Below, piece after piece: positions 14,552 to 28,404 of a stretch of DNA of 28,404 nucleotides. The translations under genes and the position numbers were made by a program. Numbering within the stretch: the first letter of the stretch is position 1; each line of letters begins with the position of its first letter. Source of the stretch: an uncultured Desulfuromonadales bacterium (GTDB lineage: Bacteria; Desulfobacterota; Desulfuromonadia; Desulfuromonadales; Geopsychrobacteraceae); assembly GCA_947259685.1 (NCBI GenBank), contig CAMYNC010000085.1, positions 1 through 28,404 of the forward strand, given 5' to 3'. The notes under the pieces were generated by a model, which worked only from the letters and a program-made list of their open reading frames with translations, ran no database searches and had not been told where the DNA came from.

Positions 14552-15415
14552 ATGAGAATTACTGCCCTCATATTTCTTTTGCTGTTCAGCATTTTCAGCA
14601 GCAGTGTTTTTTCAATGGATGAAGTCAGGGTCGTGTTGGGCCAATCGGATAAAGACAGTCGTCATGACTATCCGCACAGGATTTTAAAAGCCGCACTTGA
14701 TGCCACCGTTGCGAGTGATGGTCCATATAGATTTGTTTATGCTCCAGTCAGAATGTCCCGAAATCGTGCCCTTGCCGAGTTGAAAACAGGGACGATGATA
14801 AACGTTCATGAAGCGCCGACCCGGGACGAGTGGGAACAGGCGGTCGTTCCGATACGGATTCCGATTCGAAAGGGTTTGTTGGGTTACCGTTTGTTTTTGA
14901 TCAAGAGCAGTGATGCAGACAAGTTCAGAGATTTAAAAACAATTGAAGACCTAAAAAAGCTCAGAGCCGGGCTTGGAGCTCAATGGTCTATTACTCTTAT
15001 GCTGAAGGCGCTTAATTTTTCTATCGTCACCGGTTCCGACTATGAAGGTCTTTTCGAGATGCTCAATGCCGGTCGTTTTGATTATTTTCCACGTGGCATG
15101 AATGAAATTTATAAGGAATTTGCGGCACGAAAAGCACTCTATCCGGAAATGATCATCGAACCAACCAAGGCATTATTCTTAAATATCCCGTCATACCTTT
15201 TTGTTTCGCCGCAGTATCCTGAATTAGCCGATCGCATCAAAAAAGGGCTGTTGAGCATTGTTGAAAATGGAACCCTCGATGAAGAGTTTAATAAAGAATT
15301 CGGAGCCTTTATTGAAGCAGCAAAGCTTGGAGAACGATCGATCTTGAAGGTGGAAAATAAACTGCTTTCGCACGAAATTCCGTTGGGTGAGCCTGGTTTC
15401 TGGTTTACTCCATGA
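14552..15415 (+). CDS. Periplasmic substrate-binding-like protein
   Basis: 287 aa with a signal peptide (MRITALIFLLLFSIFSSSVF, cleavage near VFS-MDE). The mature protein resembles family-3 binding proteins but is divergent, with LRAGLGAQWSITLMLKALNF and FEMLNAGRFDYFPRGMNEIY near the middle. The second motif resembles the hinge segment of such proteins used as sensors. GAGAGG precedes the ATG at 14552. It follows the kinase by about 100 bases on the same strand, so the two binding proteins bracket the kinase. The ligand is unknown. Confidence 0.75.
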   Translation: MRITALIFLLLFSIFSSSVFSMDEVRVVLGQSDKDSRHDYPHRILKAALDATVASDGPYRFVYAPVRMSRNRALAELKTGTMINVHEAPTRDEWEQAVVPIRIPIRKGLLGYRLFLIKSSDADKFRDLKTIEDLKKLRAGLGAQWSITLMLKALNFSIVTGSDYEGLFEMLNAGRFDYFPRGMNEIYKEFAARKALYPEMIIEPTKALFLNIPSYLFVSPQYPELADRIKKGLLSIVENGTLDEEFNKEFGAFIEAAKLGERSILKVENKLLSHEIPLGEPGFWFTP

Positions 15416-15487
15416 AGGTAAAATGGGGACAGGTTTTCTTTTCACAGTTGGCCAGTCGATGTCTTAAATATTGTAAGTTTCAAGATG

Positions 15488-15517
15488 AATGCCTCTGGAT
15501 TTCCAGGGGCATTTTTT
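15488..15517 (+). terminator. Rho-independent terminator after the sensory cluster
   Basis: AATGCC and CTGGA pair with TCCAG and GGCATT around a short loop, followed by TTTTTT. It lies 73 bases after the second binding-protein gene and just before the IS element. Confidence 0.85.
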
Positions 15518-15592
15518 GTCAAAACTTAGCTGTAGTAGTCGCGACTTGATCTGACAGTTGCCGGTTTTGCGGAGGTGTCTGTCAGGTCAAGT

Positions 15593-16627
15593 TCAAGCTA
15601 CAAGCTTTTCCTGCCAGATGCTTTTTCCGTCTTCGAGCGTTTCCATTGGCGTCCTGCCGCAGCACTTCTTCCCCTGATGGGTTCGCTCATTATTGTAGTA
15701 ATCGATCCACACGTCCAGATCTTCCTGTAACTCCTCCAGGCTGGTGTAGAGCTTTTTCCTGAAGGTGATTTGGTAAAACTCCTGCAAAATCGTCTTATGG
15801 AATCGCTCGCAAATCCCGTTAGTTTGCGGCGTTCTGGCCTTGGTTTTGGTGTGGTCGATATCATTGACGGCCAGGTAGAGTTGGTAGTCATGACTTTCGA
15901 CCTTGCCGCAATACTCGGTGCCCCGATCCGTCAGAATTCGCAGCATCGGTAATTCCTGCTCTACGAAGAACGGCAAGACCTTGTCGTTTAGCATGTCGGC
16001 GGCCGTAATCGGCGTCTTGGTAGTATAGAGCTTCGCAAAGGCAACCTTGGCGTAGGTATCAACAAAGGTTTGCTGATAGATTCGGCCGACGCCTTTCATC
16101 GTCCCCACATAGAACGTATCTTGCGAACCCAGATATCCTGGATGGTGAGTCTCGATCTCACCGGAAACCTCATCATCCAGCTTTTTTCGTTCAAGAGCCT
16201 GAACTTGGGCTTCCGTCAAGACAATCCCTTCCTCTGCGACCTTCTTTTCGAGAGCCTTAAGCCGATCTTTGAAGCATGACAGTTCATGGCGTAACCAGAC
16301 ACTGCGAACCCCGCTGGGGGAAATAAAAATGCCCTTTTTGCGCAGTTCGTTGCTGGCTCGAACTTGACCATGCGCAGGAAAATCAACTGCGTATTTTACG
16401 ACGGCATCTTCGGTTTGCTCGTCAACGCGGTTTCTCAGGTTTGGTTGGCGGCGGTCCTTTTCGATCAATGCCTCGAAACCGCCATCATCCACCGCATCCT
16501 TATAGCGATAGAAGGTGTCTCTTGAAACGCCCATAATCTGGCAGGCTTTGGACACATTCCCCAGTTCCTCGGCCAGAGTCAATAAACCTACTTTGTGCTT
16601 GATGATTCTTCCGTTACCATTGAGCAT
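15593..16627 (-). CDS. IS481-family DDE transposase
   Basis: 344 aa from ATG 16627. An N-terminal helix-turn-helix (LAEELGNVSKACQIMGVSRD, then TFYRYKDAV) precedes an integrase-type core. The three catalytic acids are visible in the order DTYAKVAFAKLY, LTDRGTEYCG, and NGICERFHKTI, so the DDE triad is complete. The end YYNNERTHQGKKCCGRTPME is typical of the family. The frame extends upstream to 16690, but that part overlaps a hairpin and AAAGG lies correctly before 16627. The enzyme appears intact. Confidence 0.92.
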   Translation of the reverse strand: MLNGNGRIIKHKVGLLTLAEELGNVSKACQIMGVSRDTFYRYKDAVDDGGFEALIEKDRRQPNLRNRVDEQTEDAVVKYAVDFPAHGQVRASNELRKKGIFISPSGVRSVWLRHELSCFKDRLKALEKKVAEEGIVLTEAQVQALERKKLDDEVSGEIETHHPGYLGSQDTFYVGTMKGVGRIYQQTFVDTYAKVAFAKLYTTKTPITAADMLNDKVLPFFVEQELPMLRILTDRGTEYCGKVESHDYQLYLAVNDIDHTKTKARTPQTNGICERFHKTILQEFYQITFRKKLYTSLEELQEDLDVWIDYYNNERTHQGKKCCGRTPMETLEDGKSIWQEKLVA

Positions 16628-16628
16628 G

Positions 16629-16687
16629 AGGGTTACCTTTCTTGTTTTGATGGTTTGGGTCGCACCTCCATCAAAACCGGTAACCCT
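16629..16687 (-). promoter_or_regulatory. Long hairpin covering the transposase ribosome-binding site
   Basis: On the transcript, AGGGTTACC near 16687 pairs with GGTAACCCT right before the ATG (9 bp), and GTTTTGATGG pairs with CCATCAAAAC inside it (10 bp). The Shine-Dalgarno AAAGG lies at the base of the 3' arm. Such hairpins in IS leaders block translation of read-through transcripts from neighbouring genes; that role is inferred. Confidence 0.65.
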
Positions 16688-16783
16688 CACTTTTTCAAGC
16701 TCGGTGTCCGATCAAGTCTGAACTACTGCACATAATACCGTTTCCTGCTTGACCATCTCCTGTCTCGTCGTTATCTTTCCCGC

Positions 16784-17428
16784 ATGGCCCGTTTATCCTG
16801 ACTCGTCATTTCTGGTTGTCCCCATCACGTCACCCAGCGAGGTGTTCGTTCCATCGACATTTTTTCCAGCGACGAAGACCGCCATGCCTATCTGAATTTC
16901 ATGGCGGAAGAGTCCGAACGTTTCGGATTGTCCTTTCTGGCGTGGTGCCTGATGGACAACCATGTTCATTTGATCGTTGTGCCGGAAAAAGAAACTTCCC
17001 TCGCCCGCGCCGTCGGCGAAGCCCACCGCCGCTACACCCGAATGAAAAATTTCGCAGAAGGGGTGCGGGGCTATTTGTTTCAGGGGCGTTTCGGCTCCTG
17101 CGTGCTCGACGAGTCTCATCTGCTTTCAGCGGCGCGATATATTGAACTGGACCCCCTCAAGGCAGGCCTGATAAAGCAAGCTTGGGACTATCCGTAAGCG
17201 AGCTGTCGATTTCATTGCTGCCAAGCTGAAACTGACCCCCTGGTGCGAGAAAGGACCTTGCCGGGGATGGTTGATGACTGGAGGAGCTTTCTCCATCAAG
17301 AGAATCCAGGGGCACAAGAACGTGTGCTGAAAGGAACGCGAACAGGTCGACCGGTCGGCAGTAACGATTTTGTCTCTCAGCTGGAGGCGATGTCGGGACG
17401 AATTCTGCACCCGGGTTTGCCGGGGTGA
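16784..17428 (+). pseudogene. REP-associated tyrosine (IS200-like, HUH) transposase with two nonsense codons
   Basis: One continuous frame from ATG 16784 encodes a full-length RAYT of about 214 codons, interrupted twice. MARLS is followed by TGA at 16799-16801 (arginine expected), then LVISGCPHHVTQRGVRSIDI. The HUH motif is intact in MDNHVHLIVVP, and the catalytic tyrosine is in AHRRYTRMKNF. After LIKQAWDYP a TAA (17195-17197) stands where the family has tryptophan (WSSA). The same frame then resumes with the C-terminal domain (LPGMVDDWRSFLHQE, GTRTGRPVGSNDFVSQLEAM). The loss seems recent, since the rest of the protein is well conserved. Confidence 0.85.
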
Positions 17429-17539
17429 CCTCGAAAAGAGAAATAGGTATTGTGTCCCCAGAATGGCCTCTACGGACGTTGTTCGTTTCGTCTCAGCATC
17501 GACGACACTGTTAGCTTCTGTGCTGGAGGGGCCTTTATA

Positions 17540-17640
17540 GCGAGCTTTCCAGATCGATAACCTGGCAGTTTTGATCGCGCGGGCTTCAAGTTGGGCTGAT
17601 TTGGCAGATCTGCCGTCTATCAGGTTCAGATTACCTCTAA
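17540..17640 (-). repeat. Dispersed repeat, copy A
   Basis: Read on the minus strand it encodes NLNLIDGRSAKSAQLEA then RAIKTA. A second copy at about 22360-22430, also on the minus strand, encodes LLNLIDRKSVKFAWLEA then HSTKTA. About two thirds to three quarters of the bases match across 65 positions (GAACCTGATAGAC, CTTGAAGC and AAAACTGCCAG shared). Whether it is a decayed coding family or a non-coding repeat is unclear. Confidence 0.6.
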
Positions 17641-17671
17641 AGCAAAACCGGATTACATAACTGATCATAAT

Positions 17672-17714
17672 ACAAGAAAGCCTCAGCCTGTTTATGCAGA
17701 CTGAGGCTTTCTTG
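17672..17714. terminator. Bidirectional terminator hairpin
   Basis: A perfect 15-bp stem, ACAAGAAAGCCTCAG with CTGAGGCTTTCTTGT, plus an inner CTG/CAG. It lies about 75 bases beyond the second stop of the minus-strand gene above it and probably ends that transcript. Confidence 0.7.
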
Positions 17715-17853
17715 TTCAGTATTTGGAACCCTCCCCTCTCCGAAAAGCTTGACAATTCTAGGTATAGAGGAAGGTTGAATCTTTCCTTTAGTTTCGCTTG
17801 GACTTTGGATTTTTAGCCTTACTTTTCTTGGCCTTCTTCTTTTTATCTGTCGT

Positions 17854-18915
17854 CTACTTGTTGCTCTTTGGGTTCAGCGATTTAAGTGGAAAACCAGGCC
17901 GCCGCCCCTGGGGGGTGAGCAATAGTTTCTTTATTTCAGCTAGCTGACCTTGTACCTGAACCAGTAGGGCTTTGACCTCTTGGTCGTGAGTCGCAAGAGC
18001 CGCGTTTATCTTAAGGTCATGCTCGGCAAGAGCCATATTGACGACCTGATCATGTGCAGCTAGCGCGGCCTTTATCTCATCATCATGTTTGTAAACAGTG
18101 TTTTTCATTTCAGTGTCGTGTAGGACTAACATTTCGGCAATATTTTCATCCTCGTCGATGCCGACGGACAGCTTTGTCCATTTAGCCGACACAGTGACTT
18201 CTGCTCCACTGATTAGGGGTGTTGTTGCAAAAGCTCCGGCGGTGAACCAGATACGGTAGGATTTTCCGCGCTGCAGTTTCACCTGAAAGCGTGCCGTTTC
18301 GCCTTTAAGACTAACCTGGGTGGCCCCCATCGCCACATCTGTGAGTCCCTGATCGCCGGAACGGTCCTTTTTGAACAATTCCATGGTTCCGATAGGGAGC
18401 GGTTTGTCAGGATCGGTAATATCTTCAATGCTTAACGTCAGCGACATTTCAGCGTCGTAGCCAAACCCGCCGAGGATTCCACCGAACAAGTCATAGGCGA
18501 CAGAAACCTGAGCATCGACAAAATTATCGGTATTCCCAATATTGTCGATCTTGAAATCGTTGTAGATGGCACTAGATGCGTAGTGCGCAGGGCTTAATGC
18601 ATTGGTGGGGTCCGGCACATAAGCATTGCTATAAGCCGCTGATACACGGTTTTTTTTGAGATTGTAGCTGGTATTTGTATATGGAGGTAGGTTTGCTATC
18701 CAGGGAGGTGTTAAATATCCAAGACAATTCTTAACAGGTACGTCAACCGATGCCGAAGAATAAAGGCATTCTCTTTTGCCATTCTCGGCCTGGCTGAAAA
18801 ATACCATGTTACCTGGAGCCACTGTTTTTACCTCAGCCAGCGCTGGCGAGGTGGCGAGGAAAAAAAATAAAACCCCTAGTGCGAGAACACCTTGTCTCCA
18901 AACATTCTGCTTCAT
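17854..18915 (-). CDS. Secreted protein with hendecad (HD) coiled-coil repeats, C-terminus cut by an amber codon
   Basis: 353 aa. A Sec signal peptide (residues 1-27, cleaved after SPALA) is followed by an uncharacterised domain of about 230 residues, rich in beta-type sequence. From about residue 263 come five consecutive 11-residue repeats built on xxxHDxx[IVM]xxA (LHDTEMKNT, KHDDEIKAA, AHDQVVNMA, EHDLKINAA, THDQEVKAL), then a helix (QGQLAEIKKLLL). This suggests an oligomeric coiled-coil stalk. The TAG stop (17854-17856) is followed in frame by 21 more codons, mostly lysine, to a TAA at 17788-17790. AGGAGG precedes the ATG. I do not recognise the N-terminal domain. Confidence 0.8.
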   Translation of the reverse strand: MKQNVWRQGVLALGVLFFFLATSPALAEVKTVAPGNMVFFSQAENGKRECLYSSASVDVPVKNCLGYLTPPWIANLPPYTNTSYNLKKNRVSAAYSNAYVPDPTNALSPAHYASSAIYNDFKIDNIGNTDNFVDAQVSVAYDLFGGILGGFGYDAEMSLTLSIEDITDPDKPLPIGTMELFKKDRSGDQGLTDVAMGATQVSLKGETARFQVKLQRGKSYRIWFTAGAFATTPLISGAEVTVSAKWTKLSVGIDEDENIAEMLVLHDTEMKNTVYKHDDEIKAALAAHDQVVNMALAEHDLKINAALATHDQEVKALLVQVQGQLAEIKKLLLTPQGRRPGFPLKSLNPKSNK

Positions 18916-19454
18916 ACAAAACCTCCTTTTTCAATTATAGGGTTAATGATGATATGAGCCGACCGATAAGTGATTATGTTTTTCCTGGAATCGTGGCTAA
19001 AGGCTTGAAAGGCGAAAGAAGTTGTTATTTGACAGCTTTCTGTGCATAGCTATTATCCATTCACCTGTGGAGAAAAATTTATGTGATTTCAAGCAATTAT
19101 TGCGCCATCATTAAAAGGCTCACAGTTTCAGTAGGTTATGCTTTTATAAAAAATTACATCGAATATCTGTAAAGAAAGCCAACAGTGGATTTCTTGGGAA
19201 GCCAATTGTCAATTTCTTACATCTAAAGTTTTAAAAGGTGAATCTTGTGGCTGTCGTTCAAGATATTTTAACTAGATAAACTGCATCTAGTATCTGGGGC
19301 ACTCCCCCAATCTTGTCAAAACTTAGTAAACTCAGTTTTGGTAGGATCTTTGCTGTCTGATCAGTCAATTATCAAATATGTAATAATGCTAGCTCGACTG
19401 AGTAGGTCAAATCTCGAATCTTGTTCCAAGATGTTCCCACGTTGCGAACTGTTA
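18916..19454. other. Non-coding AT-rich stretch upstream of the hendecad-repeat gene
   Basis: No open frame of note on either strand. TATAAT at 18935-18940 on the minus strand, just before the AGGAGG of the gene at 18915, could be its -10, but no good -35 is visible. Nothing else is supportable before the RNA-like element at 19455. Confidence 0.4.
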
Positions 19455-19580
19455 CCTAAATCGATCAAACCCAATAATTGATCTCAAAAGTAGTGATTTA
19501 AGGACTTACGCCCAGACATTTGAAGCATAATTTGGCCCTCTTCCCTCGACGTGATTTCGGGTGGTTAGAGGGTCTTTTTG
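19455..19580 (+). ncRNA. Candidate structured RNA, copy 3 of a new family
   Basis: Outer stem CCTAAATC (19455-19462) with GATTTAAGG (19495-19503, one bulge). Inner stem GATCAA with TTGATC (19463-19468, 19478-19483). Then TCAAAAGTAGT, then GCCCAGACA. The terminator hairpin GGCCCTC (19534-19540) pairs with GAGGGTC (19568-19574) and is followed by TTTTT. The same order of elements with different stem sequences occurs at 21231 and 26431. No plus-strand gene follows, so it may be an independent small RNA. Confidence 0.5.
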
Positions 19581-19789
19581 CTTGCTCCTCATTTTGGAGC
19601 AACATATGAGAAGATCCGGCTGAAATACTTCTGCAATTTCGAGCAGGTAGGAAATTGATGAGAGCGGCCTAGCTAAAATTGTTTGGGGTGGGCTTAAAAA
19701 AGTCCGATTCCTTAGGCTTTCCCGATTATCCGTTGTTCAGATCCCCATAGTTTTGATGAAATGTAGTGACATAACTTAAATTTAAACCA

Positions 19790-19828
19790 AAGCGCCCCAA
19801 TCGTTTTCAACGAGCGATTGGGGCGCTT
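19790..19828. terminator. Strong bidirectional terminator
   Basis: A perfect 14-bp GC-rich stem, AAGCGCCCCAATCG with CGATTGGGGCGCTT, and an 11-base loop. It sits 40 bases beyond the stop of the minus-strand gene at 19869 and should end its transcript. Confidence 0.85.
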
Positions 19829-19868
19829 CTATTTGTGAACCAACGAGAATTCAAGCAGGAACTTATCT

Positions 19869-20255
19869 CTACTGTCCGTCCCCCCAGAATTTCCACCATT
19901 TTTTTCGTTGTTGACGCGACTCCTGTCCTTTTTCAGAGCCCTTGGCCAGTTCTTTTTGTTCTTGGAGAGATTTTTTCTCTCTTTGTTTTTCAATCCCTTT
20001 GAGTTTATCGTCCTGTTCCTCGTCTTGCTTTTGAGCTTTTTGTTTAACTTTCGGCTGCTTGCTTTTTTCCTTTTCCTCTTTGAGTTCCCGATCATCGTCG
20101 GAGTCATCTGAATCTTTGTTTTTCATTTCTTCTTTATGCAATTCCTTCTGTTCTTGGGTCGGTTTTCCTTTTCCTGCCCATGATGGTTTGTCAGCAAGGA
20201 CCGGGTTGGAAAAACAGAAAAATAAAAGAGCAATCAGCGCAAACGTCTTTTTCAC
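19869..20255 (-). CDS. Small secreted, highly charged protein with WWKFW tail
   Basis: 128 aa. A signal peptide (residues 1-21, cleaved after VLA) precedes DKPSWAGKGKPTQEQKELHK. Then comes a low-complexity stretch of Lys, Glu, Asp and Gln (about 37-115) predicted to be helical or disordered. It ends with the aromatic motif KKWWKFWGDGQ. The opening and closing motifs recur together in small deltaproteobacterial and gammaproteobacterial hypothetical proteins, as far as I recall. The function is unknown; the aromatic tail could contact membrane or envelope. Start is GTG with AGGAGG ten bases upstream. Confidence 0.75.
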   Translation of the reverse strand: MKKTFALIALLFFCFSNPVLADKPSWAGKGKPTQEQKELHKEEMKNKDSDDSDDDRELKEEKEKSKQPKVKQKAQKQDEEQDDKLKGIEKQREKKSLQEQKELAKGSEKGQESRQQRKKWWKFWGDGQ

Positions 20256-20368
20256 GAAAATAACCTCCTGAATTTATAAGATATTCGTTTTGTTGTGCCT
20301 ACGGGGTTGTTAAAAAATGAATTTAACAAGAAATTCTTCGCTTGGAAATATTAGTTTCAAACTTGTGA

Positions 20369-21064
20369 CTATCGAAGTCCGAGGCGTGACAATAATTTTC
20401 CGAGTTCTCGGTTGAGGGAATGGTCCCGGTGGAGGAATGAAAATACCGGTGGCTTACGCATTTCGAACTTTCGCAATTCCTGCATCAACTGCGGGTGAGG
20501 ACCAAGCTTTATCCCCTTTTTGAACGTCTCTAAGGCTGTTCCCCTCTTATTTCTCAGCAGGTAGATACGTCCCAGATTGTAGTAGTGATCAGCGATTGTC
20601 GGCTCTTCTTTAATGGCCCCTATGCACATATTAATGGCGTTGCTATATTCTTGATTCACTTTTGCACAGCAATAAGCAAGGTGTGAACGAACTTTCGGGG
20701 TACTGTTGAGTTTTTCGGCCTCCTCAAGTAAAAGCATTGCTTCAAGAACATTTTCTTTTTCGAGCAAAGCAATGCCTTTACCGACGAGTTCAAAATATCT
20801 GCTTGATGACTTAGATTCTTCTTCTACTGTTGTTTTTTCTGCTGCTTTTTCAGAGGTACTCAATTGAATATTTTCGAAACAATCTTCTATCGTCTGGTCT
20901 ATGGATCTCGAAACTGTTGATTCAGGTTTCCTGATTGCGTCTGATAGCGGGAGTAGCTCTTCGCAATTAGGGCATTTGCACTGAGTTGCCGTTTGGGGAA
21001 TCTCATTTTCAGAGATAGTCGTATTGAATGCGCATTTTGGGCAGCAAAACTGAATTATTGTCAT
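20369..21064 (-). CDS. Zinc-ribbon and TPR protein
   Basis: 231 aa. The N-terminus is an MJ0042-type zinc ribbon with four cysteines (CPKC at about 8-11, CPNC at about 31-34). An acidic Ser-rich linker follows, then a TPR region from about residue 88, with a clear repeat at about 160-192 (ADHYYNLGRIYLLRNKRGTA). The end, RKPPVFSFLHRDHSLNRELG followed by KLLSRLGLR, is conserved in Geobacter-type TPR proteins, from memory. No signal peptide is present, so it is cytoplasmic and probably a scaffold. The 18-bp palindrome at 21106-21123 lies just upstream. Confidence 0.8.
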   Translation of the reverse strand: MTIIQFCCPKCAFNTTISENEIPQTATQCKCPNCEELLPLSDAIRKPESTVSRSIDQTIEDCFENIQLSTSEKAAEKTTVEEESKSSSRYFELVGKGIALLEKENVLEAMLLLEEAEKLNSTPKVRSHLAYCCAKVNQEYSNAINMCIGAIKEEPTIADHYYNLGRIYLLRNKRGTALETFKKGIKLGPHPQLMQELRKFEMRKPPVFSFLHRDHSLNRELGKLLSRLGLR

Positions 21065-21105
21065 TTGAAAACCTTGAAAACAACATGATTTTTACCAGTT
21101 AAAAT

Positions 21106-21123
21106 CAATATGCTAGCATATTG
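21106..21123. promoter_or_regulatory. 18-bp perfect palindrome, operator candidate
   Basis: CAATATGCTAGCATATTG reads the same on both strands. It lies 42-59 bases upstream of the minus-strand TPR gene, in the expected promoter region. Such a length fits a dimeric regulator site. Confidence 0.5.
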
Positions 21124-21230
21124 GCACTCTTTAACTCAAAGAATTCCTCCGAATCGCCGGGGCAACCCCCTGCGCCCAAACCAGAATGTTATTCTGATGT
21201 GTGTTCTTTTTAGGCGGTCTCATATATCGT

Positions 21231-21355
21231 GACAAAAGTAAGCCCCGGTACCAGCCAGGGCTTCTCTGTTTCAGGATCTCGAAAGTAGTTACTTTTGCCC
21301 CGTTGACAGTGATTTTAGATGCCCCAGATCTTCATCGATCCGGGGCATTATACTT
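21231..21355 (+). ncRNA. Candidate structured RNA, copy 1 of a new family
   Basis: Outer stem CAAAAGTAA (21233-21241) with TTACTTTTG (21289-21297), nine perfect pairs. Inner hairpin GCCCCGG…GGGC at 21242-21261. Then TCTCGAAAGTAGT (21277-21289), then GCCCCGTTGACA. The terminator stem ATGCCCC…GGGGCAT spans 21319-21348 and includes a GATC/GATC inner part. No plus-strand gene follows for more than 1 kb, favouring an independent RNA over a leader. Confidence 0.55.
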
Positions 21356-21434
21356 TCAAATGTCCCGACAATAACCGCCCCATTTAGGGCGAAGGCTGCA
21401 ATCACCCCATAAAAATATTTCTGAGCATAAATTC

Positions 21435-21932
21435 CTATTCCCTGACGTATGTATCGATGTCTGTCTCATGCGGCATCCCCATCCGGCGGGCATACTCCGA
21501 CTCGATAATTTGATAATGGTTGCGGGTCTCTTTCGCCATCTGAGTAAAAACTGTACGAACCCCCGGGTCGATGATCTGCCGGGCAGTATTGAGCAGCGAC
21601 TTCTCCAGCTTTAGTTCTTTTTCCATAGCTATTTCCCGTGCCCGCCGCTCCTTGAAACTGATATCTTCTATCCCGTTCAACTCTTTGAGCACCGCCGCAT
21701 TAAAGGTGCAGGGTTGATTGATGAAATCTTCGAAGGTGCCGAAGTTGTCACCGTTATAATGACGGAAAAAATTATGGGCATGCTCTTCCTTGTCTTTAGC
21801 TAGGCGGTTAAAAACAGATTTAGCGCCTTCGTCAGTTGCCATCTCAGCCGCACGGCGATAGAAACAGATCAGTCCTTTTTCGGTTTCGACAGCAATTTTA
21901 AGAGCTTCTTGATGCTTCATTTCTTGTGGCAT
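21435..21932 (-). CDS. Ferritin-like/rubrerythrin-domain protein
   Basis: 165 aa from ATG 21932, chosen because GGGAGG lies six bases upstream. A four-helix ferritin-like fold is indicated by carboxylate motifs at regular spacing: ETEKGLICFYRRAAE near 15-29, DKEEHAHNFFRHY (ExxH) near 44-56, EKELKLEKSLL, and ETRNHYQIIESEY near 139-151. The rubredoxin-like Cys tail of true rubrerythrins is absent. Such proteins handle iron or peroxide with a di-iron site. It stands alone in the cell's cytoplasm, with no operon partner. Confidence 0.8.
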   Translation of the reverse strand: MPQEMKHQEALKIAVETEKGLICFYRRAAEMATDEGAKSVFNRLAKDKEEHAHNFFRHYNGDNFGTFEDFINQPCTFNAAVLKELNGIEDISFKERRAREIAMEKELKLEKSLLNTARQIIDPGVRTVFTQMAKETRNHYQIIESEYARRMGMPHETDIDTYVRE

Positions 21933-22111
21933 AGGAGCCTCCCTTAGAACGGTGTTATACAAAAAGGCTATCGTCATAAGATAGCCGAGAAGAGCCACTT
22001 GTCAAATGTGTAAGTCGCCCCCGTTTTGTGCTTTCGTTTAGCGGGTCGAGACTTTCTTGTTAGTTGCCCGATAATGTAATCCTGCTTTACCTTCAGGCAT
22101 AATATATATTT

Positions 22112-22140
22112 GGCCTGTGAAAAATCAGGATTTTACTTAT
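22112..22140. repeat. Short dispersed repeat, copy A (GGCCTGTSAAAAATCAG)
   Basis: A 27-29-base sequence that recurs at 26664-26692 with four mismatches and, more loosely, at 26364-26393. All three are in the same orientation in non-coding DNA. Confidence 0.55.
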
Positions 22141-22224
22141 GTGAACGATCTTCAAGGCCTAAATGCCTATTTTCAAAACTTGTGATTTGAATCTCACTTC
22201 TCCATTTTGACACACCAAAATCGA

Positions 22225-22270
22225 CCCTTCCGCTTTGCTGTGATTTCAGCAACTTAGCGGAAGGGCTATT
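22225..22270. terminator. Terminator hairpin with stacked stems
   Basis: CCCTTCCGCT pairs with AGCGGAAGGG and TTGCTG pairs with CAGCAA inside, followed on the plus strand by CTATTTTTG. It also lies at the 3' end of the minus-strand repeat frame that stops at 22266, so it may serve both strands. Confidence 0.7.
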
Positions 22271-22469
22271 TTTGATACGGATTTTTGAGATATTTCAGCA
22301 GGAATAGTTCAATGATTGCAGCCTGTTGGAAGATCGGGTGGGTCGGCCTGCTGGCAGTTTTGGTTGAGTGAGCTTCAAGCCAGGCAAATTTTACCGATTT
22401 CCGGTCTATCAGGTTCAAAAGATTTGAGATTTTCCGGCAATCGGACAACAGCTTCAACCAATCTGCCAC
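22266..22469 (-). repeat. Dispersed repeat, copy B, with 67-codon open frame
   Basis: The minus-strand frame starts MADWLKLLSDCRKISNLLN and includes LIDRKSVKFAWLEAHSTKTA, matching copy A at 17540-17640. It continues to LKYLKNPYQK and stops at 22266, directly before a terminator. The frame may be translated, but there is no Shine-Dalgarno and the repeat could be non-coding. I do not recognise a family. Confidence 0.45.
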
Positions 22470-22649
22470 AACTTGCTGGACAGATTGGTTACTTCATGGA
22501 GCGCACTTATTGGAATCTCATTAAACCAAAACCCTATAACCATAAAGGTAATGTTTCTAGGGAGTTAAGCTTAATTGAATATAATATCTAACGTCCTTGC
22601 CTCCCCTTAAAAAGGTGGTAAATCTTTAGAGGAATAGTCAACAATAACA

Positions 22650-22773
22650 AAATCCCGACAAAGCCAACGCTTCTGTGAAGAGGTGGGCGGAAAGCGGCGG
22701 GTCTTTGTTTGCAAAGATGGCCGAGCTACCGATGGATGTTGATCCTTATGGTGTGCTCGGCCTTTGTTATTTG
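22650..22773 (+). ncRNA. GEMM-I riboswitch (cGAMP/c-di-GMP type) with overlapping terminator
   Basis: The aptamer core GGGCGGAAAGCGGCGGGTCT (22685-22704), a paired CTTTG/CAAAG arm, and GATGGCCGAGCTACCGATGG match the Geobacter cGAMP-responsive GEMM-I RNA as I remember it. CTTC-TGTG-GAAG forms the P2 arm. GGCCGAGC (22719-22726), part of the aptamer, also pairs with GCTCGGCC (22755-22762) before TTTGTTATTT, forming a terminator. Ligand binding would hold GGCCGAGC in the aptamer and let transcription continue, an ON switch. The secreted beta-helix gene follows at 22969. TATAAT at 22580-22585 may be the -10. Confidence 0.85.
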
Positions 22774-22968
22774 CAGGTGATGTCATATATGGAAGGCAAT
22801 GTAATCAGGCACTAGTGCTTTGCAAAGAGAAGGCAAGTCAAGTTGCTAATTTAATAAATTGTTTTTTTCGACTTACCCTCGGCTGGTTGTGGGTTGTCTG
22901 CCAGGTGGACAGGCGCAAAGTGGCCAAAGAGTCTGAATCGACAAGAAACAACAGAAAGGGAGGATTCC

Positions 22969-23856
22969 ATGAAAAAGAATTGGTTATATCTCTTAATCGC
23001 TATGCTTGCTTGGGCCTTATCTGCACAGGCAGCCCCAACACCTGTCTCTAGTTGCAACACGGTTCTTGATGAACGTGGGGCTTACTTCTTAACCACCGAC
23101 TTAACCTGTCCGGAAACAGGTGTAACCATCACAGCTAAGAATGTGCATCTTGACCTTAAGGGACACACCATTGCATTTGATGTTAATGGTGGTGGTCTTT
23201 GGGCAGGTATCCTCATTTTAGCAGACAACGCCAGCATCAACGGCAATGGTGGGACACTGGAGGGATTCAATTATGGAGCTCTAATTGGACTGCCTCCATT
23301 TGGCCCTGATTTAACTGAGCGGTCCGCAAAAAATTGCAAGATACAAGGGGTGAAAGTTACCGATAATACGAATGCGGGGATCGCCGCAGGCTGGGGGTCT
23401 TCAAATAACCACATCATTGGCAACACTGCTATGGGTAATCTAAGAGGGATTCTACTGTTTGAAAAATCGCCAGGCAATTTAATAAAGGACAACATCGCGT
23501 CACAAAACTTCATCGGAATCCTCATCCACGATTCAAATATGAACCAGATTCTGCACAACACGACAAATAATAATGTTGGAGAGACTGATCTGGGCATTAT
23601 TACTGGTTTCGGAATCTCATTGCGAAATGGGGCCAGCCGAAATGTCGTTCAAGGCAACACTGCGAATGACAATGGGCGATGGGGAATCGCATCGACCGGG
23701 AATGAACTCTCACCGTTCCCAACGAACAACAACATTCTGGTCAACACGGCGCAGGGCAATGTTTGGGACCTTGCCGACTACGATTCTACTTGCACCAACA
23801 ATTGGGTAAACAACACGTTTGATCAAGAGATATCGATTGCCTGCATGATTAAGTGA
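22969..23856 (+). CDS. Secreted right-handed beta-helix repeat protein
   Basis: 295 aa from ATG 22969 (GGGAGGA five bases upstream). The signal peptide MKKNWLYLLIAMLAWALSAQ ends in AQA-A. From about residue 45 the sequence has parallel-beta-helix (NosD/PbH1-type) coils rich in Asn and Gly: VTITAKNVHLDLKGHTI, then SSNNHIIGNTAMGNLRGILL, SPGNLIKDNIASQNFIGILI, and NQILHNTTNNNVG. Such proteins bind or modify surface polysaccharide, but no catalytic residues can be named. The upstream GEMM-I riboswitch puts it under cyclic-dinucleotide control, which fits a surface or attachment role. Confidence 0.85.
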   Translation: MKKNWLYLLIAMLAWALSAQAAPTPVSSCNTVLDERGAYFLTTDLTCPETGVTITAKNVHLDLKGHTIAFDVNGGGLWAGILILADNASINGNGGTLEGFNYGALIGLPPFGPDLTERSAKNCKIQGVKVTDNTNAGIAAGWGSSNNHIIGNTAMGNLRGILLFEKSPGNLIKDNIASQNFIGILIHDSNMNQILHNTTNNNVGETDLGIITGFGISLRNGASRNVVQGNTANDNGRWGIASTGNELSPFPTNNNILVNTAQGNVWDLADYDSTCTNNWVNNTFDQEISIACMIK

Positions 23857-23870
23857 TCAGGAATATTAAG

Positions 23871-23900
23871 GGGGATCGGCGTATGTCAGTGCCGATCCCC
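23871..23900. terminator. Hairpin after the beta-helix gene
   Basis: A 10-bp perfect stem, GGGGATCGGC with GCCGATCCCC, and a 10-base loop, 15 bases after the stop. It has no T run, so it may protect the 3' end rather than terminate by itself. Confidence 0.6.
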
Positions 23901-24019
23901 TGTAGCCAAGATGGCCCGGACCGAGCTAATGCAGATGGTTGATAAAGAATTGGTTTCCAGGCAGGGGAAAGCTAATCTTAAATTAAATATAGTGATTTAG
24001 GTGGAAGGCTGCTGCCGAA

Positions 24020-24165
24020 CTGAGCACAGCCTCCGCTTGTCAGTCTTTCTGAGTCTGCTCGACAGATTTCTTGTCCAGCTTCGCCGCCAGCCTGCAAAAC
24101 CGTCGCCCTTGAAACATTGAGATGGCGAGCAAAATCCTCTTTGCTGGGAATGTCTACGAAGCTAG
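24020..24165 (-). pseudogene. Helix-turn-helix regulator fragment
   Basis: On the minus strand the frame reads DIPSKEDFARHLNVSRATVL, a good helix-turn-helix. One base out of frame it continues LAAKLDKKSVEQTQKD to a stop near 24042. There is no start codon upstream with a Shine-Dalgarno. It looks like a frameshifted remnant of a small DNA-binding protein; the family cannot be named. Confidence 0.35.
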
Positions 24166-24218
24166 AATCGATTTATCCGCGAAGAAAAGGTTCAGTCATG
24201 TGTGGTGAGAGGTAATCG

Positions 24219-24392
24219 ATGGCGACGGGAAAAACAATTCTTGTGATATATCATTCCCAGGGCGGTACTATGGAGGAAATGGCCAAACGGTTTGCCGCTG
24301 GTGCCGCACGGGAGGAAAGTATAACCGTTGACCTGAAACCGGCTGGGGAAGCGACCCTTGATGAAAGTTCGCTGCCCCGCCGATTATCATGA
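24219..24392 (+). pseudogene. Flavodoxin-like NAD(P)H-dependent oxidoreductase, N-terminal fragment
   Basis: 57 codons from ATG 24219 (GAGAGG six bases upstream). TILVIYHSQGGTMEEMAKRF is the first strand and the phosphate-binding loop of flavodoxin-fold proteins, which bind FMN. The frame then has AAREESITVDLKPAGEATLD and ends at TGA 24390-24392. One base shifted, ADYH follows, as if a base change moved the frame before the next family motif. The rest of the domain is absent, so this is a non-functional stub. Confidence 0.6.
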
Positions 24393-24686
24393 ACGTTATA
24401 TGTCTGAGTTACGGATAAACTGCTCAGAGCCTTAAAGATGTGGCCAGAATGCGCATATGTGACCAGCCTCTTTAATCATGGCTCTCTCCATTACCCGTGC
24501 CCCTGACTTGGTCGACAGTGATTTTTAGCTGGAACAGTCTGTGCCACTATTCATGCTCGCGCTTCGATTGATGTCGGAGTAATTATGAAACAACTAGTTA
24601 TGATGATTCATTACTATATGAACTCTACGAATCCACTGCTTTTAGGTACAATCAGCGAATAAATTTTCGTTAGGAGAATGAATAAT

Positions 24687-26204
24687 ATGAAAAAGTTTCT
24701 TATCAATATGAAGTGGTCGATGTGGATAACATTAGCGCTCGTCATGATGTCGTGCAACACTTTTGCTGCAGATTGCCCGACCGATATAAAAGCGATGACA
24801 AATGAAGATGCAAAGGTGCCCTTAGATGTGCTGAGGCATCGCGTCAAGCCGCTGACGAAATGCGAGCTAGAAGTTGAAGCGCAGGCCTGGCTTGTATTGT
24901 TAAAGGGAAAAGTCTCTCAAATCAGTGACGCTGAAGTAGCGGCGATCTACAAGAAGGAAGAGATAAAAAAAGCGAAGGAAGTGGAATCGATACTGAAGGA
25001 TGTAAAAGAAGCAAAAAACGGTGATGATCGTGAAGGGAGAATAGAAACCACTCAGGAAGCAAAGGCCGCCCTGAAAGAAGTAGAAAGAAAATCCGCACAG
25101 GATGTTTCGGTGCAAAAAGCCATTAAGGCTGCGACTGCAAAAGCCAAAGAAGAGGACAAGCCCGTTTCCGTTAGCGACACGACAAAGGAAGCTAAAGCGG
25201 AGATAAAAACTGCGTTAATCAAGCATGTCACGGATCTGAGGGCGGAAAGAACCTCACTTATCGATCTCTTTAATGTTGTGCTTGCTGAGCTGGAATCGAA
25301 AGGTGGTGAGATCAAAGAATACGATAGCTATATCAAAGCAGTCTCCGGCATCAAGGTTGATGTGACGGACGCGAGCGCAACATGGACTACGATTACCGGT
25401 TGGTTGTTGTCCCCTGAAGGCGGCTTTCGCTGGGCCGTAAACCTGATTCAGTTCATTGTAATTGTCGTGGCATTCTACTTCCTTTCTATTCTTGCCGGAA
25501 AAGCCGCTAAAAAAGCATTTTCGAAGTCGACGCATTTCACAACATTATTGCGCGAATTCTTGGTGTTGGCAGCACGTCGGCTTGTTCTGTTCATCGGTTT
25601 TTTTGTCGGTCTGTCTGCGATGGAGGTAAACATCGGGCCGGTGCTGGCTATCATCGGCGCGGCCGGCTTTGTTATTGCTTTTGCTTTGCAGAATTCACTG
25701 AGCAATTTTGCCAGTGGCATTCTTATGCTGGTCTATAGGCCATTTGACATAGCCGATATGATCAATGTGGCGGGTGTTCTGGGCAAAGTTGAATCGATGA
25801 ATCTGTTGTCTACTCAGCTAAGAACCCCCGATAACCAGCTTGTAGTTGTTCCCAATAACTCAGTCTGGGGTGATGTCATTATCAATGTCACTGGTATCAC
25901 GAGGCGTCGTGTAGATCTGGTATTCGGTATCGGCTATGGCGACGATATCGATGTGGCGCAGAAAATTCTGGAAAATATCGTAAACGAGCACGAACTTGTT
26001 TTGAAGGAACCAGAATTTATTGTGAAACTGCACGAACTCGGGGATTCATCGGTTAACTTTATCTGCCGACCCTGGGTTAAACCGGAGGATTACTGGAACG
26101 TTTACTGGGATATCACCCGTGAGGTTAAGCGCCGGTTTGATGCTGATGGTGTTTCAATACCCTTTCCGCAGCGTGATGTTCATATATATCAGGAAACAAC
26201 ATAA
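24687..26204 (+). CDS. MscS-type mechanosensitive channel with a large N-terminal periplasmic helical domain
   Basis: 505 aa from ATG 24687; an in-frame ATG at 24678 is only one base from the GGAG, so the later one is preferred. A signal peptide (through SCNTFAA) is followed by a long charged, helical region (about 30-220) rich in Lys, Glu and Ala. Membrane helices follow near 255-272, 300-320 and 325-345. The pore helix and vestibule are typical of MscS: GAAGFVIAFALQNSLSNFAS, GILMLVYRPFDIAD, then NSVWGDVIINVT. The C-terminal domain (VDLVFGIGYGDDIDVAQKIL) is complete. The channel releases solutes on osmotic downshift; the periplasmic extension may modulate gating. It is monocistronic. Confidence 0.9.
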   Translation: MKKFLINMKWSMWITLALVMMSCNTFAADCPTDIKAMTNEDAKVPLDVLRHRVKPLTKCELEVEAQAWLVLLKGKVSQISDAEVAAIYKKEEIKKAKEVESILKDVKEAKNGDDREGRIETTQEAKAALKEVERKSAQDVSVQKAIKAATAKAKEEDKPVSVSDTTKEAKAEIKTALIKHVTDLRAERTSLIDLFNVVLAELESKGGEIKEYDSYIKAVSGIKVDVTDASATWTTITGWLLSPEGGFRWAVNLIQFIVIVVAFYFLSILAGKAAKKAFSKSTHFTTLLREFLVLAARRLVLFIGFFVGLSAMEVNIGPVLAIIGAAGFVIAFALQNSLSNFASGILMLVYRPFDIADMINVAGVLGKVESMNLLSTQLRTPDNQLVVVPNNSVWGDVIINVTGITRRRVDLVFGIGYGDDIDVAQKILENIVNEHELVLKEPEFIVKLHELGDSSVNFICRPWVKPEDYWNVYWDITREVKRRFDADGVSIPFPQRDVHIYQETT

Positions 26205-26219
26205 GGGTGTCGATGGGTT

Positions 26220-26267
26220 GATAAGCAAGCAGCGCTTTAATATGATAAGCAAGCAGCGCTTTAATAG
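26220..26267. repeat. Two-copy 24-bp tandem repeat
   Basis: GATAAGCAAGCAGCGCTTTA followed by ATAT (26220-26243) is repeated at 26244-26267 with one final mismatch. It lies right after the MscS-type gene. It is probably a slippage duplication. Confidence 0.9.
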
Positions 26268-26363
26268 TATTCTATTGTAAAGACTTGGATAGCACTCTTT
26301 TAAAAAATTAAAGGTTCTGCTGATTCTGTAATATAGCTAAAAACCTTCAGCAATGTAGAATCG

Positions 26364-26434
26364 TTTTTTCAAAAATCAGAGATTCACTTTTGAAAGAGAA
26401 TTTTTCTATGATCTCGTCAATTCTCAGAAGTTGT
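26364..26434. repeat. Short dispersed repeat, copy B
   Basis: TCAAAAATCAG, then ATTCACTTTTGA and CAGAAGTTGTA; the same blocks recur in order at 26664-26725. It runs directly into the candidate RNA at 26431. Confidence 0.5.
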
Positions 26435-26556
26435 AACAAAATGGAGCCCCGGTCATAGCTGGGGCTTCTTCGATTCTGTGTCTCGAAAGTAGTAAGTTGT
26501 GACTGCCCGACAGTCAGTTTTCGATGCCCCAGGTCGGTCAGATCTGGGGCTTTTTA
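26431..26556 (+). ncRNA. Candidate structured RNA, copy 2 of a new family
   Basis: Outer stem GTAACAA (26433-26439) with TTGTGAC (26497-26503, one mismatch). Inner hairpin AGCCCC with GGGGCT (26445-26450, 26461-26466). Then TCTCGAAAGTAGT (26481-26493), then GCCCGACAGT. The terminator GCCCCAG (26526-26532) pairs with CTGGGGC (26544-26550) and runs into TTTTTAT. The inner hairpin sequence resembles copy 1, the outer stem does not, yet pairing is kept. Confidence 0.55.
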
Positions 26557-26663
26557 TCTTCCAAAAATCGGAAAATCAAATTCGATAATTGTTCTGTCGG
26601 AGCCGCTCCTGGATGAAATCGGGAGTTATGGGAGGACTTTTGAAAGGAAAATCATGGGGGATC

Positions 26664-26725
26664 GGCCTGTCAAAAATCAGCATTTCACTTTTGATAGGGC
26701 AAAATCGGTCGTTTTCAGAAGTTCT
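26664..26725. repeat. Short dispersed repeat, copy C
   Basis: GGCCTGTCAAAAATCAGCAT and TTCACTTTTGATAG, then CAGAAGTTCTA. It matches copy A at 22112 in its first part and copy B at 26364 throughout. Confidence 0.5.
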
Positions 26726-26829
26726 ATTTTTAATGCATAGATTTAAGACGGAAAATCTATAATTTCCCAGCAGTGGGCTTGACCTCTCATTAAGTTCTGA
26801 TAGAAGTAAAATACAAATCACAAAAATAT

Positions 26830-26952
26830 CGACAATCCCGAAAAAGCCAGTCCTTCTGTGAGGGGGGGACGGAAAGCGACGGGTCTTTGTAGGTAAAAGA
26901 TGGCCGAGCTGCCGAAGGATATTCATCCTTATGGTGTGCTCGGCCTTTTTAT
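26830..26952 (+). ncRNA. GEMM-I riboswitch, second copy, no obvious target gene
   Basis: GGGACGGAAAGCGACGGGTC (26867-26884), GATGGCCGAGCTGCCGAAGG (26900-26919) and the CTTC/GAGG P2 arm parallel the riboswitch at 22650. GGCCGAGC (26902-26909) also pairs with GCTCGGCC (26938-26945), followed by TTTTTATT, forming a terminator. Downstream there is no native-looking gene, only an 18-codon frame at 27008 and then very AT-rich foreign-looking DNA. The gene it once controlled may have been displaced. TTGACC at 26779-26784 is a possible -35. Confidence 0.8.
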
Positions 26953-27112
26953 TGCTGGCGACTTGCTTAGCCTGAAAGGGAAAGATATTAAAGGATGTAT
27001 TGGAGGCATGCATGACAAGCTGAGAGTTATCCAGAACAAGATAATAACTCGACATGTATCCTAAGAAAATATAGTAATAAATAACAGTAACTAAAAGTTA
27101 AAGGTTGAATTT

Positions 27113-27232
27113 ATGTCAGACCTTATGGAGGAAATTCGAAAAAACAAAGATGTGTTAACAGTTATTTTTACTGCTGCTAGTGTAGTGATGGCAGCTCTTG
27201 CCTTAATTGTAAGTTTAATAGTAAACATTTAG
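27113..27232 (+). CDS. 39-aa membrane peptide, probably the N-terminus of an amber-split gene
   Basis: ATG 27113 (AAAGG upstream) encodes MSDLMEEIRKNKDV followed by a hydrophobic helix (TVIFTAASVVMAALALIVSL) and stops at TAG 27230-27232. The same frame stays open after the TAG and joins the ORF at 27314, so this is probably the membrane anchor of a 207-codon gene cut by one nonsense codon. Codon use and base content are extremely AT-rich, unlike the rest of the window. I do not recognise the family. Confidence 0.55.
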   Translation: MSDLMEEIRKNKDVLTVIFTAASVVMAALALIVSLIVNI

Positions 27233-27313
27233 TTATTTAAAAAAACAGAGCAATTTAATAAATCAAACAAACTTACTGATATACATATTTACATACAACA
27301 CGGTAGAGATTCA

Positions 27314-27736
27314 ATGTACGAAATATTTAATTCATGGAAAAAAGATAAAAAAGATACTGAAGATAATGAAATTAAAAAAGAATTTATTATAAAAAATAAT
27401 AAGTTAAAGAAGGAATTTATGCAATATTACAACGAAAACTACCATGAAAAGGAATGGAAAACGGATGAAAAGAAAATGAGCAAGAATATACATATGTATT
27501 TACATGAATTGGACTACACATGGAAAAGAATTGAAAAATATAAAGAATTCAAAAAAACAGATGTTATGGAGCAATTAGGGGAAGGGATTGAAATGGATAA
27601 AGAGTTAATAATGATATATCTTGTGGCACATTGGATTGAACACTACGGAGAAGAGTATAACGAAATAGAAAATAAATTTTGGAAAGATGTTCCAAACATT
27701 GTAAACGCAGCTTCAGAATGGAAAAAGAAATTTTAG
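27314..27736 (+). CDS. AT-rich hypothetical protein, probably the C-terminal part of an amber-split gene
   Basis: 140 aa from ATG 27314, which has no good Shine-Dalgarno. It is Lys- and Glu-rich and helical (MYEIFNSWKKDKKDTEDNEI at the start, AASEWKKKF at the end). The frame is open upstream without a stop to the TAG at 27230-27232, through LFKKTEQFNKSNKLTDIHIY, a sequence that fits directly after a membrane helix. I infer one gene, 27113-27736, with a membrane anchor and a cytoplasmic helical domain. The low GC content marks it as acquired. The function is unknown. An attC-like site follows. Confidence 0.6.
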   Translation: MYEIFNSWKKDKKDTEDNEIKKEFIIKNNKLKKEFMQYYNENYHEKEWKTDEKKMSKNIHMYLHELDYTWKRIEKYKEFKKTDVMEQLGEGIEMDKELIMIYLVAHWIEHYGEEYNEIENKFWKDVPNIVNAASEWKKKF

Positions 27737-27744
27737 GCAAAAAA

Positions 27745-27831
27745 CATAAACAATCAGTGAAGGCGACGGGAAGAAGCGCTGAGGCGTTACGCGGAAAACT
27801 ACTCGACCCGCGCCTTACTTTTTCGTTAGGC
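27745..27831 (+). other. attC-like recombination site (integron cassette end)
   Basis: A 12-bp stem joins 27757-27770 to 27807-27818 and leaves two single bases (G27759, A27766) bulged on the 5' arm. Six bases after the 3' arm is GTTAGGC (27825-27831), a perfect R' core (GTTRRRY). Five bases before the 5' arm is CATAAAC, which keeps only the AAC of the R'' core. The spacing, the bulged bases on one arm, and the start of a new gene 28 bases later all fit attC. The poor R'' box keeps this tentative. Confidence 0.5.
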
Positions 27832-27859
27832 GTTGGCAACGTCACTTCAGGAGATCGTT

Positions 27860-28404
27860 ATGGACAGAGACATCGTCAACTCCGTGCACTTCCTCTACCT
27901 GAACGGAGCAAGCGAGATACAGAAGATACTCGCGCCGCTATGGTGTGGCCCGGACACCGAGGAGGCGGTAAAGGACCTGACCGAGGAGATCGATGACAAG
28001 CGCCGCCTGAATCCGTACCTGTACAAGTTTCTAAAGGAGCTTGAGTGGCAATTGATGTCCCTGCCGAGGTCGGAATATGTCCTGGGCTACCCTCTTGGCG
28101 CCCCGCAGCGCAAGCCGGGCGAAGCTCGAGCTGCGTTTGTGGCAATGCCATATGGTCCGTTGTGGTTCAAGCTTATTTGCGACACCATAGTTGACACTGC
28201 GTCGGGCTTGGGTTTCGCTGCCGAAGTCTCCAAGGACATCTCGGTCCCAGGCACGATCCGGAACCAGATATGGGTCGGTATACGTCGATCTGAGGCAGTA
28301 GTCGCAGACATAACCGGCCACAACCCGAACGTCCTGTACGAAGTTGGCTTGGCGCACGCGCTGGGCAAGCACACCATCCTCATAGCCCAAGAAGAAACAC
28401 TGTT
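27860..28404 (+). CDS. TIR/nucleoside-deoxyribosyltransferase-like protein (partial, runs off the window)
   Basis: At least 181 codons from ATG 27860 (AGGAG seven bases upstream) with no stop before the edge. The first 95 residues are a helical region I do not recognise (MDRDIVNSVHFLYLNGASEI at the start). From about residue 96 a Rossmann-like domain begins (AAFVAMPYGPLWFKLICDTI). It continues with a segment typical of TIR-like and 2-deoxyribosyltransferase-like domains: RRSEAVVADITGHNPNVLYE, then VGLAHALGKHTILIAQEE. The conserved Asp in ADITGHN and the Glu in LYEVGLAHA are the likely catalytic and binding residues. Such domains act on NAD or nucleosides and are frequent in anti-phage systems. 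The gene is GC-rich, unlike its neighbour. Confidence 0.7.
   Translation, partial: MDRDIVNSVHFLYLNGASEIQKILAPLWCGPDTEEAVKDLTEEIDDKRRLNPYLYKFLKELEWQLMSLPRSEYVLGYPLGAPQRKPGEARAAFVAMPYGPLWFKLICDTIVDTASGLGFAAEVSKDISVPGTIRNQIWVGIRRSEAVVADITGHNPNVLYEVGLAHALGKHTILIAQEETL

What the first reader, a model, noticed from the sequence alone, without database searches (positions are those of the whole stretch)
19455..26556. Three copies of a candidate new structured RNA family (CUCRAAAGUAGU RNA)
Plus-strand segments at 19455-19580, 21231-21355 and 26431-26556 share one order: outer stem, inner hairpin, TCTCGAAAGTAGT (TCAAAAGTAGT in copy 3), closing strand of the outer stem, GCCC-n-GACA, then a terminator with a T run. 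The outer stems are CAAAAGTAA/TTACTTTTG, GTAACAA/TTGTGAC and CCTAAATC/GATTTAAGG. The letters change while pairing is kept, which is covariation. All three are intergenic, and no plus-strand gene follows closely. I know no Rfam class with this pattern. They could be small RNAs or orphan riboswitches.
Basis: partly seen in the sequence, partly recalled or inferred. Interest (0 to 1): 0.78.

Follow-up and report, generated by a model that had tools for sequence, protein, structure and literature searches.

The report
Paired small-RNA-like intergenic repeat
A stretch of about 140 bases between genes occurs twice in this bacterial DNA with the same two hairpins and the same 13-letter core, and looks like a duplicated small-RNA gene; the proposed third copy and the proposed paired outer stem are not well supported.

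Summary
Two of the three copies are real relatives. Segments 21218-21360 and 26422-26565 align end to end (score 56; the best of 500 dinucleotide shuffles is 18). They share an AGCCCCGGT hairpin, the exact 13-mer TCTCGAAAGTAGT, GACAGT, and a GCCCC/GGGGC terminator-like hairpin. The third (19455-19580) has the core with one mismatch and a similar layout, but a covariance model of the first two scores it at noise (5.8 bits, E 4.3). The 'outer stem with covariation' is not supported: its register differs between copies, forcing it costs about 8 kcal/mol and its pairing probability in copies 1 and 2 is about zero. The local hairpins keep 18 of 18 pairs, with no two-sided change. Differences do not follow codon phase. 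Rfam has no match above chance. One exact pattern finds no copy in about 85,000 species genomes; no relative turned up in the plasmid, phage and viral searches made. Best reading: a paralogous pair of stand-alone small-RNA genes in an uncultured Desulfuromonadales-like bacterium. Main rival: an intergenic repeat or two-way terminator module. Transcription is untested, and genomes of the right order were otherwise out of reach.

The parts
21218..21360 (+). copy c1 of the repeated element (extent of similarity to c2)
   Evidence: local alignment score 56, 0 of 500 shuffles reach it
21240..21263 (+). c1 hairpin 1 (AAGCCC...GGGCTT); also terminator-like on the minus strand
21277..21289 (+). c1 core TCTCGAAAGTAGT
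21321..21346 (+). c1 hairpin 2 (GCCCC...GGGGC), weak T-rich tail
26422..26565 (+). copy c2 of the repeated element
26443..26468 (+). c2 hairpin 1 (GGAGCCCCGGU...GCUGGGGCUUC, 11 pairs)
26481..26493 (+). c2 core TCTCGAAAGTAGT
26526..26550 (+). c2 intrinsic-terminator-like hairpin, tail TTTTTATCTT
26383..26412 (+). possible sigma-70 promoter upstream of c2 (TTCACT-18-TATGAT, 9 of 12); weak: 16 such sites found in the region against a shuffle mean of 12.8

Best explanation
The element is a pair of paralogous small-RNA genes of about 120-140 nt. Shown: two diverged (70% identical) copies with the same order of parts, namely a 5' G+C-rich hairpin, a variable linker, the invariant UCUCGAAAGUAGU, a variable stretch, GACAGU, a U-rich stretch and a 3' terminator-like hairpin. 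Inferred: each is transcribed on the plus strand from its own promoter, ends at the 3' hairpin, and acts in trans, the invariant core serving as the pairing (seed) region for target mRNAs, as in sibling-sRNA families. c3 may be a separate small RNA that carries the same core.
For: Homology of c1 and c2 far above shuffles. Folding energy z -4.6 and -5.2, no shuffle of 200 as good. All 18 pairs of the two hairpins kept, and the 3 changes in them keep pairing by G-U (its shuffle control says nothing with two sequences, and the structure was derived from these two). Invariant core between variable linkers. Changes spread evenly over codon phases, 8/9/8. Strong terminator in c2. c1 lies on the strand opposite to both neighbouring genes, so a plus-strand transcript there would be stand-alone.
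Against: No promoter at the scan's threshold before c1, and no c1 plus-strand terminator listed. In the minimum-energy folds 7 of 13 core bases are paired in c1 and 8 of 13 in c2, mean unpaired probability 0.47 and 0.39, so an open seed is not shown. Core complementarity to 24 translation-start regions of the window is no better than for shuffled cores (239 of 300 shuffles as good or better). c3 folds no better than chance (z -1.4, 18 of 200 shuffles as good). No homologue found. No transcript data.
Confidence: 0.43

Rival explanations
1. A DNA-level or termination repeat: a duplicated intergenic module bracketed by a minus-strand terminator at its left end and a plus-strand terminator at its right end (or a small non-autonomous mobile repeat), with no trans-acting RNA.
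For: Hairpin 1 of c1 reads as a terminator on the minus strand (21263-21240, tail ACTTTTGTCA) and hairpin 2 of c2 as one on the plus strand. In c1 the two ends are near inverted repeats (AAAGTA-A-GCCCCGG / CCGGGGC-ATTA-TACTTT, by eye; 5' and 3' ends pair in the c1 fold). c1 and c2 have opposite orientation relative to their neighbouring genes. A transposase gene of the IS481 kind and an IS200-like one lie in the same window.
Against: Does not explain why the 13-nt core and GACAGT between the hairpins are conserved; no target-site duplication was seen by eye around either copy; only two secure copies in 28 kb.
Confidence: 0.32
2. One reading: three members with a covarying outer stem enclosing hairpin and core.
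For: The core occurs 3 times against 0.01 expected, with a similar layout; segment-only c3 alignments are reached by only 3 (c1) and 6 (c2) of 500 shuffles; c2 can form a contiguous 9-pair outer stem with G-U pairs.
Against: The outer stem costs 8.4 and 7.8 kcal/mol in c1 and c2 with pairing probability about 0, and the registers differ; c3 is not recovered by the c1+c2 model.
Confidence: 0.12
3. Cis-acting leader or riboswitch with an attenuator.
For: Hairpin 1 and the terminator carry alternative complementarity (GCCCCGG with CCGGGGC in c1, by eye); two riboswitch matches with terminators lie nearby.
Against: No plus-strand ORF of 60 aa or more starts within 900 bases after c1; the two such ORFs that start soon after c3 are antisense to a minus-strand gene; c2 is followed by another riboswitch match before the next ORF of that size.
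Confidence: 0.07
4. Remnant of a coding repeat (in both copies a frame is open up to TCT CGA AAG TAG).
For: 15 of 27 identical positions in that frame over the ungapped block.
Against: Changes by codon position are 8/9/8 of 25; 12 of 14 changed codons in that frame are non-synonymous; by eye the c2 frame has no ATG, GTG or TTG before its last five codons.
Confidence: 0.02

Closest known systems
Trans-encoded base-pairing small RNAs with several paralogous copies (Qrr, LhrC and similar sibling sRNAs; named from recall, not compared here one by one)
   Same: Stand-alone intergenic genes of about 100-140 nt, hairpin, invariant short core, 3' intrinsic terminator, several diverged copies (features of the known families are recalled)
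   Different: No match above chance to any Rfam family; no transcript, chaperone or target evidence
Rfam sRNA families that came up below threshold (Spot 42, isrJ, BSnc120, NsiR1)
   Same: Only short hairpin or terminator stretches
   Different: E 0.18 to 7.5 and far below the gathering scores: chance level
c-di-GMP-I-GGC (GEMM-I) riboswitch, matched twice in the same window
   Same: Two copies about 4.2 kb apart, each with a plus-strand terminator by eye
   Different: Separate loci (22654-22734, 26837-26917) that model R1 does not match

Membership tests
trans-encoded small RNA gene | intergenic, non-coding | tested here: met
   ORFs; phase 8/9/8
trans-encoded small RNA gene | own promoter | tested here: inconclusive
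   9-of-12 site before c2, none before c1; overall number near expectation
trans-encoded small RNA gene | 3' intrinsic terminator | tested here: inconclusive
   met for c2, not listed for c1 on the plus strand
trans-encoded small RNA gene | accessible conserved seed that pairs with target starts | tested here: inconclusive
   core conserved but 7 and 8 of 13 bases paired in the folds; no excess over shuffles in 24 start regions of this window only
trans-encoded small RNA gene | expressed transcript, Hfq or other chaperone | not testable with these tools
   no RNA-seq; no genome held for the window
any Rfam 15 family | score above gathering threshold | tested here: not met
structured RNA class supported by covariation (as claimed) | compensatory changes in the outer stem | tested here: not met
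   one two-sided change, three broken pairs in c2, differing registers; 259 of 500 shuffles reach the same values
structured RNA class supported by covariation (as claimed) | homologues in other genomes | tested here: inconclusive
   0 hits for one exact pattern in genome contigs; 274 genomes of a gammaproteobacterial class gave no convincing relative; Desulfuromonadales genomes not otherwise reachable
riboswitch / leader | regulated gene directly downstream on the same strand | tested here: not met
   c2 is followed by a separate riboswitch match
small mobile repeat (MITE-like) | terminal inverted repeats and target-site duplication | tested here: inconclusive
   inverted ends in c1 by eye, no duplication seen by eye

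The most novel reading that the evidence does not exclude
A lineage-restricted, multi-copy family of regulatory RNAs defined by the core UCUCRAAAGUAGU, not in Rfam 15, with c3 a true but rearranged member (it has a second core-like site, TCTCGAATCTTGT at 19412-19424 with 3 mismatches, preceded by a possible small hairpin by eye).
Probability: 0.15. Interest if true: 0.5.

Novelty: new member of a known kind. Interest (0 to 1): 0.3.

Why it matters
If it is a small-RNA family, it would be a sibling-sRNA set in the Desulfuromonadales. My few paper searches (listings and abstract openings only) showed no such family there, which is not proof that none is in print. The identical core would predict shared targets that could be looked up in any related genome. 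If it is only a repeat, it is an ordinary intergenic duplication.

Tried and rejected
Coding repeat: rejected by codon-phase count. Known RNA family: rejected. Further copies in the window: R1 lists 28 matches at E up to 10; of the six shown as alignments two are c1 and c2 and four are hairpin-type. The third-best (15418-15525, minus, 20.2 bits, E 0.00027) is by eye the reverse complement of a plus-strand terminator just after the gene ending at 15415, which also shows that R1's E-values are too kind to G+C-rich hairpins; the other 22 were not inspected one by one.

Homologues: one exact pattern in genome contigs, 0 places. Two viral contigs patterns gave 6 and 5 stretches whose contexts look unrelated by eye. 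c1 in plasmids gave one chance match (Klebsiella, E 0.03, 30% covered), c2 in plasmids and in phages none; c1 was not run on phages and c3 was run on neither. Megablast of window 15000-28404 on plasmids: none. MscS protein loci: 17, of which 15 are titled as gammaproteobacterial groups and 2 as alphaproteobacterial, best 78% identity; none holds a copy (R1; nucleotide comparison). In the 8 genomes behind L007-L014, TCTCRAAAGTAGT with up to one mismatch has 16 matches in 7 of 8, all one off, fewer than the reversed control in total, with unrelated contexts by eye. The AapQ permease matches in only 3 of these 8 (best 46-54%), so I think that the MscS gene was exchanged and these are not close relatives. 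The nearest named relatives of AapM are Deltaproteobacteria, Desulfuromonas, Malonomonas, Desulfuromonadales (82-85%), my basis for the lineage; the 7775-9106 protein was no help, its named hits being mixed (Eisenbacteria, Planctomycetota, Gemmatimonadota, Deltaproteobacteria and others) and its closest (86-92%) unnamed.

R1 in 274 genomes of the class of G008 (behind a record titled Gammaproteobacteria): 16 with E <= 0.01, best 28.8 bits. Ten of the 18 places listed there were asked about as loci L049-L058; each was seen as an alignment and none has the intact core. The two that span the whole model with both halves aligned and score best of that kind, L049 (28.8 bits, 8 of 13 core letters by eye) and L051, run into protein-coding starts (MSEPYIIKMPQL..., MRILHTMLRVADL...), so I count them as chance. 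The remaining places were not looked at, save one that fell in L054. Three protein queries in viral contigs found no relative. A Pelobacter propionicus plasmid gave one 17.6-bit hairpin match. psRNA2 in 21 genomes: 1 weak match. A rubrerythrin-like neighbour had no plasmid match. CsrA-sponge idea dropped: one GGA per copy by eye.

Papers: searches found 0, one, fifteen (12 listed), two; I saw listings and the openings of abstracts only and opened no paper.
Full report
What is there. The window encodes, among others, an amino-acid ABC transporter, a sensor kinase, transposases and a mechanosensitive channel. Its AapM-like permease is closest to proteins named Deltaproteobacteria, Desulfuromonas, Malonomonas and Desulfuromonadales (82-85%), so I take the source to be an uncultured relative of that order; another protein gave mixed names. 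No genome is held for the window.

Check of the copies. c1 (around 21.3 kb) and c2 (around 26.5 kb) are homologous over about 140 nt (21218-21360 and 26422-26565): local alignment score 56 against a dinucleotide-shuffle mean of 11.0, maximum 18 in 500. 88 of 125 gapless columns are identical. Identical blocks include arms of the first hairpin, the 13-mer core, GACAGT, and arms of the second hairpin. The pattern TCTCRAAAGTAGT occurs three times where 0.01 is expected, so the core in c3 is unlikely to be chance. Beyond the core, c3 is borderline: 49 of 500 shuffles match c1-c3 over the whole intergenic regions, 3 of 500 (c1) and 6 of 500 (c2) for the candidate segments alone. A model built from c1 and c2 without c3 scores the c3 area 5.8 bits, E 4.3. 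A separate similarity (score 21; 1 of 500 shuffles as good, that one reaching 29) joins sequence upstream of c2 with 19312-19386 upstream of c3; it may be a shared promoter region or an AT-rich repeat.

Structure. Both hairpins keep 18 of 18 pairs between c1 and c2, with 3 one-sided changes to G-U and no two-sided change. Two sequences cannot show more; the shuffle control of that call is empty (500 of 500), and the structure was derived from these same sequences. The folds of c1 and c2 are far more stable than shuffles (z -4.6, -5.2), that of c3 is not (z -1.4, 18 of 200 as good). The outer stem is the weak point of the finding. In c1 and c2 its pairs have probability about 0 and forcing it costs 8.4 and 7.8 kcal/mol. 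The c1 stem columns give 6 of 9 pairs in c2, with one two-sided change and three breaks, and shuffles reach the same values in 259 of 500. c2 can form a contiguous 9-pair stem with G-U pairs in another register. Beside random points, contiguous stems of eight or more pairs occurred at 189 of 2000 and of nine or more at 74 of 2000. So covariation is not supported for c1 and c2; c3's stem does fold (0.54 over five pairs) but is not alignable to the others.

Function. The element is not coding (8/9/8 changes by phase) and has no match above chance in Rfam. c1 and c3 are poor candidates for leaders of a plus-strand gene: no plus-strand ORF of 60 aa or more starts within 900 bases of c1, and the two that start soon after c3 are antisense to a minus-strand gene; c2 is followed by a GEMM-I riboswitch match before the next such ORF. 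The best reading is a duplicated small-RNA gene whose invariant core is the working part. Against it stand the lack of a promoter or listed plus-strand terminator for c1, the core being half paired in the folds (7 and 8 of 13 bases), no excess of complementarity to 24 start regions, and no homologue. The strongest rival is a repeat or two-way terminator module: hairpin 1 of c1 reads as a terminator on the minus strand and hairpin 2 of c2 as one on the plus strand, and c1 has inverted ends. The core count made me lower the best explanation from 0.45 to 0.43 and raise the rival from 0.30 to 0.32 on checking.

Relatives. An exact pattern covering hairpin arm, core and GACA found 0 places in genome contigs; it would miss copies with another hairpin sequence, so it argues only that close copies are absent from those species. 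Model R1 over 274 genomes of a gammaproteobacterial class found 16 genomes at E <= 0.01; the ten loci seen (of 18 places listed) lack the intact core, and two full-length ones run into protein-coding starts. The 17 loci hold no match at E <= 1.

Noticed in passing
22654-22734 and 26837-26917: Two c-di-GMP-I-GGC (GEMM-I) riboswitch matches (44.5 and 59.9 bits; only the second passes the gathering score of 59) with terminator stretches 92% identical over 53 nt; the first lies ahead of a beta-helix/NosD-like gene.
   Followed up: partly
16630-16802: psRNA2-like match (53.5 bits, gathering 65) between an IS481-family transposase gene and an IS200-like (Y1) transposase ORF; the Rfam 'sRNA' may be a transposon-linked structure.
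   Followed up: partly
26353-26396, 26654-26697, 22102-22145, and weakly 19312-19340: A 44-nt AT-rich repeat around TCAAAAATCAG..TTCACTTTTGA; one copy lies just upstream of c2.
   Followed up: partly
17562-17628 and 22351-22417: 67-nt repeat (76% identical) whose minus-strand frames read alike (NLIDGRSAKSAQLEA / NLIDRKSVKFAWLEA).
   Followed up: no
24678-26204: MscS-type channel up to 78% identical to gammaproteobacterial MAG proteins although the AapM permease points to Desulfuromonadales: possible horizontal exchange.
   Followed up: partly
19412-19424: Second core-like site TCTCGAATCTTGT (3 mismatches) upstream of c3; 9 sites at up to 3 mismatches in the window against 7 expected, so it may be chance.
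   Followed up: no
22225-22276: Plus-strand terminator-like hairpin (CCCTTCCGCT...AGCGGAAGGG, tail CTATTTTTGAT, by eye; not listed by the scan) with no plus-strand gene seen before it; another possible small RNA.
   Followed up: no
10456-11032: RHH-type antitoxin and ParE-type toxin pair beside a resolvase.
   Followed up: partly
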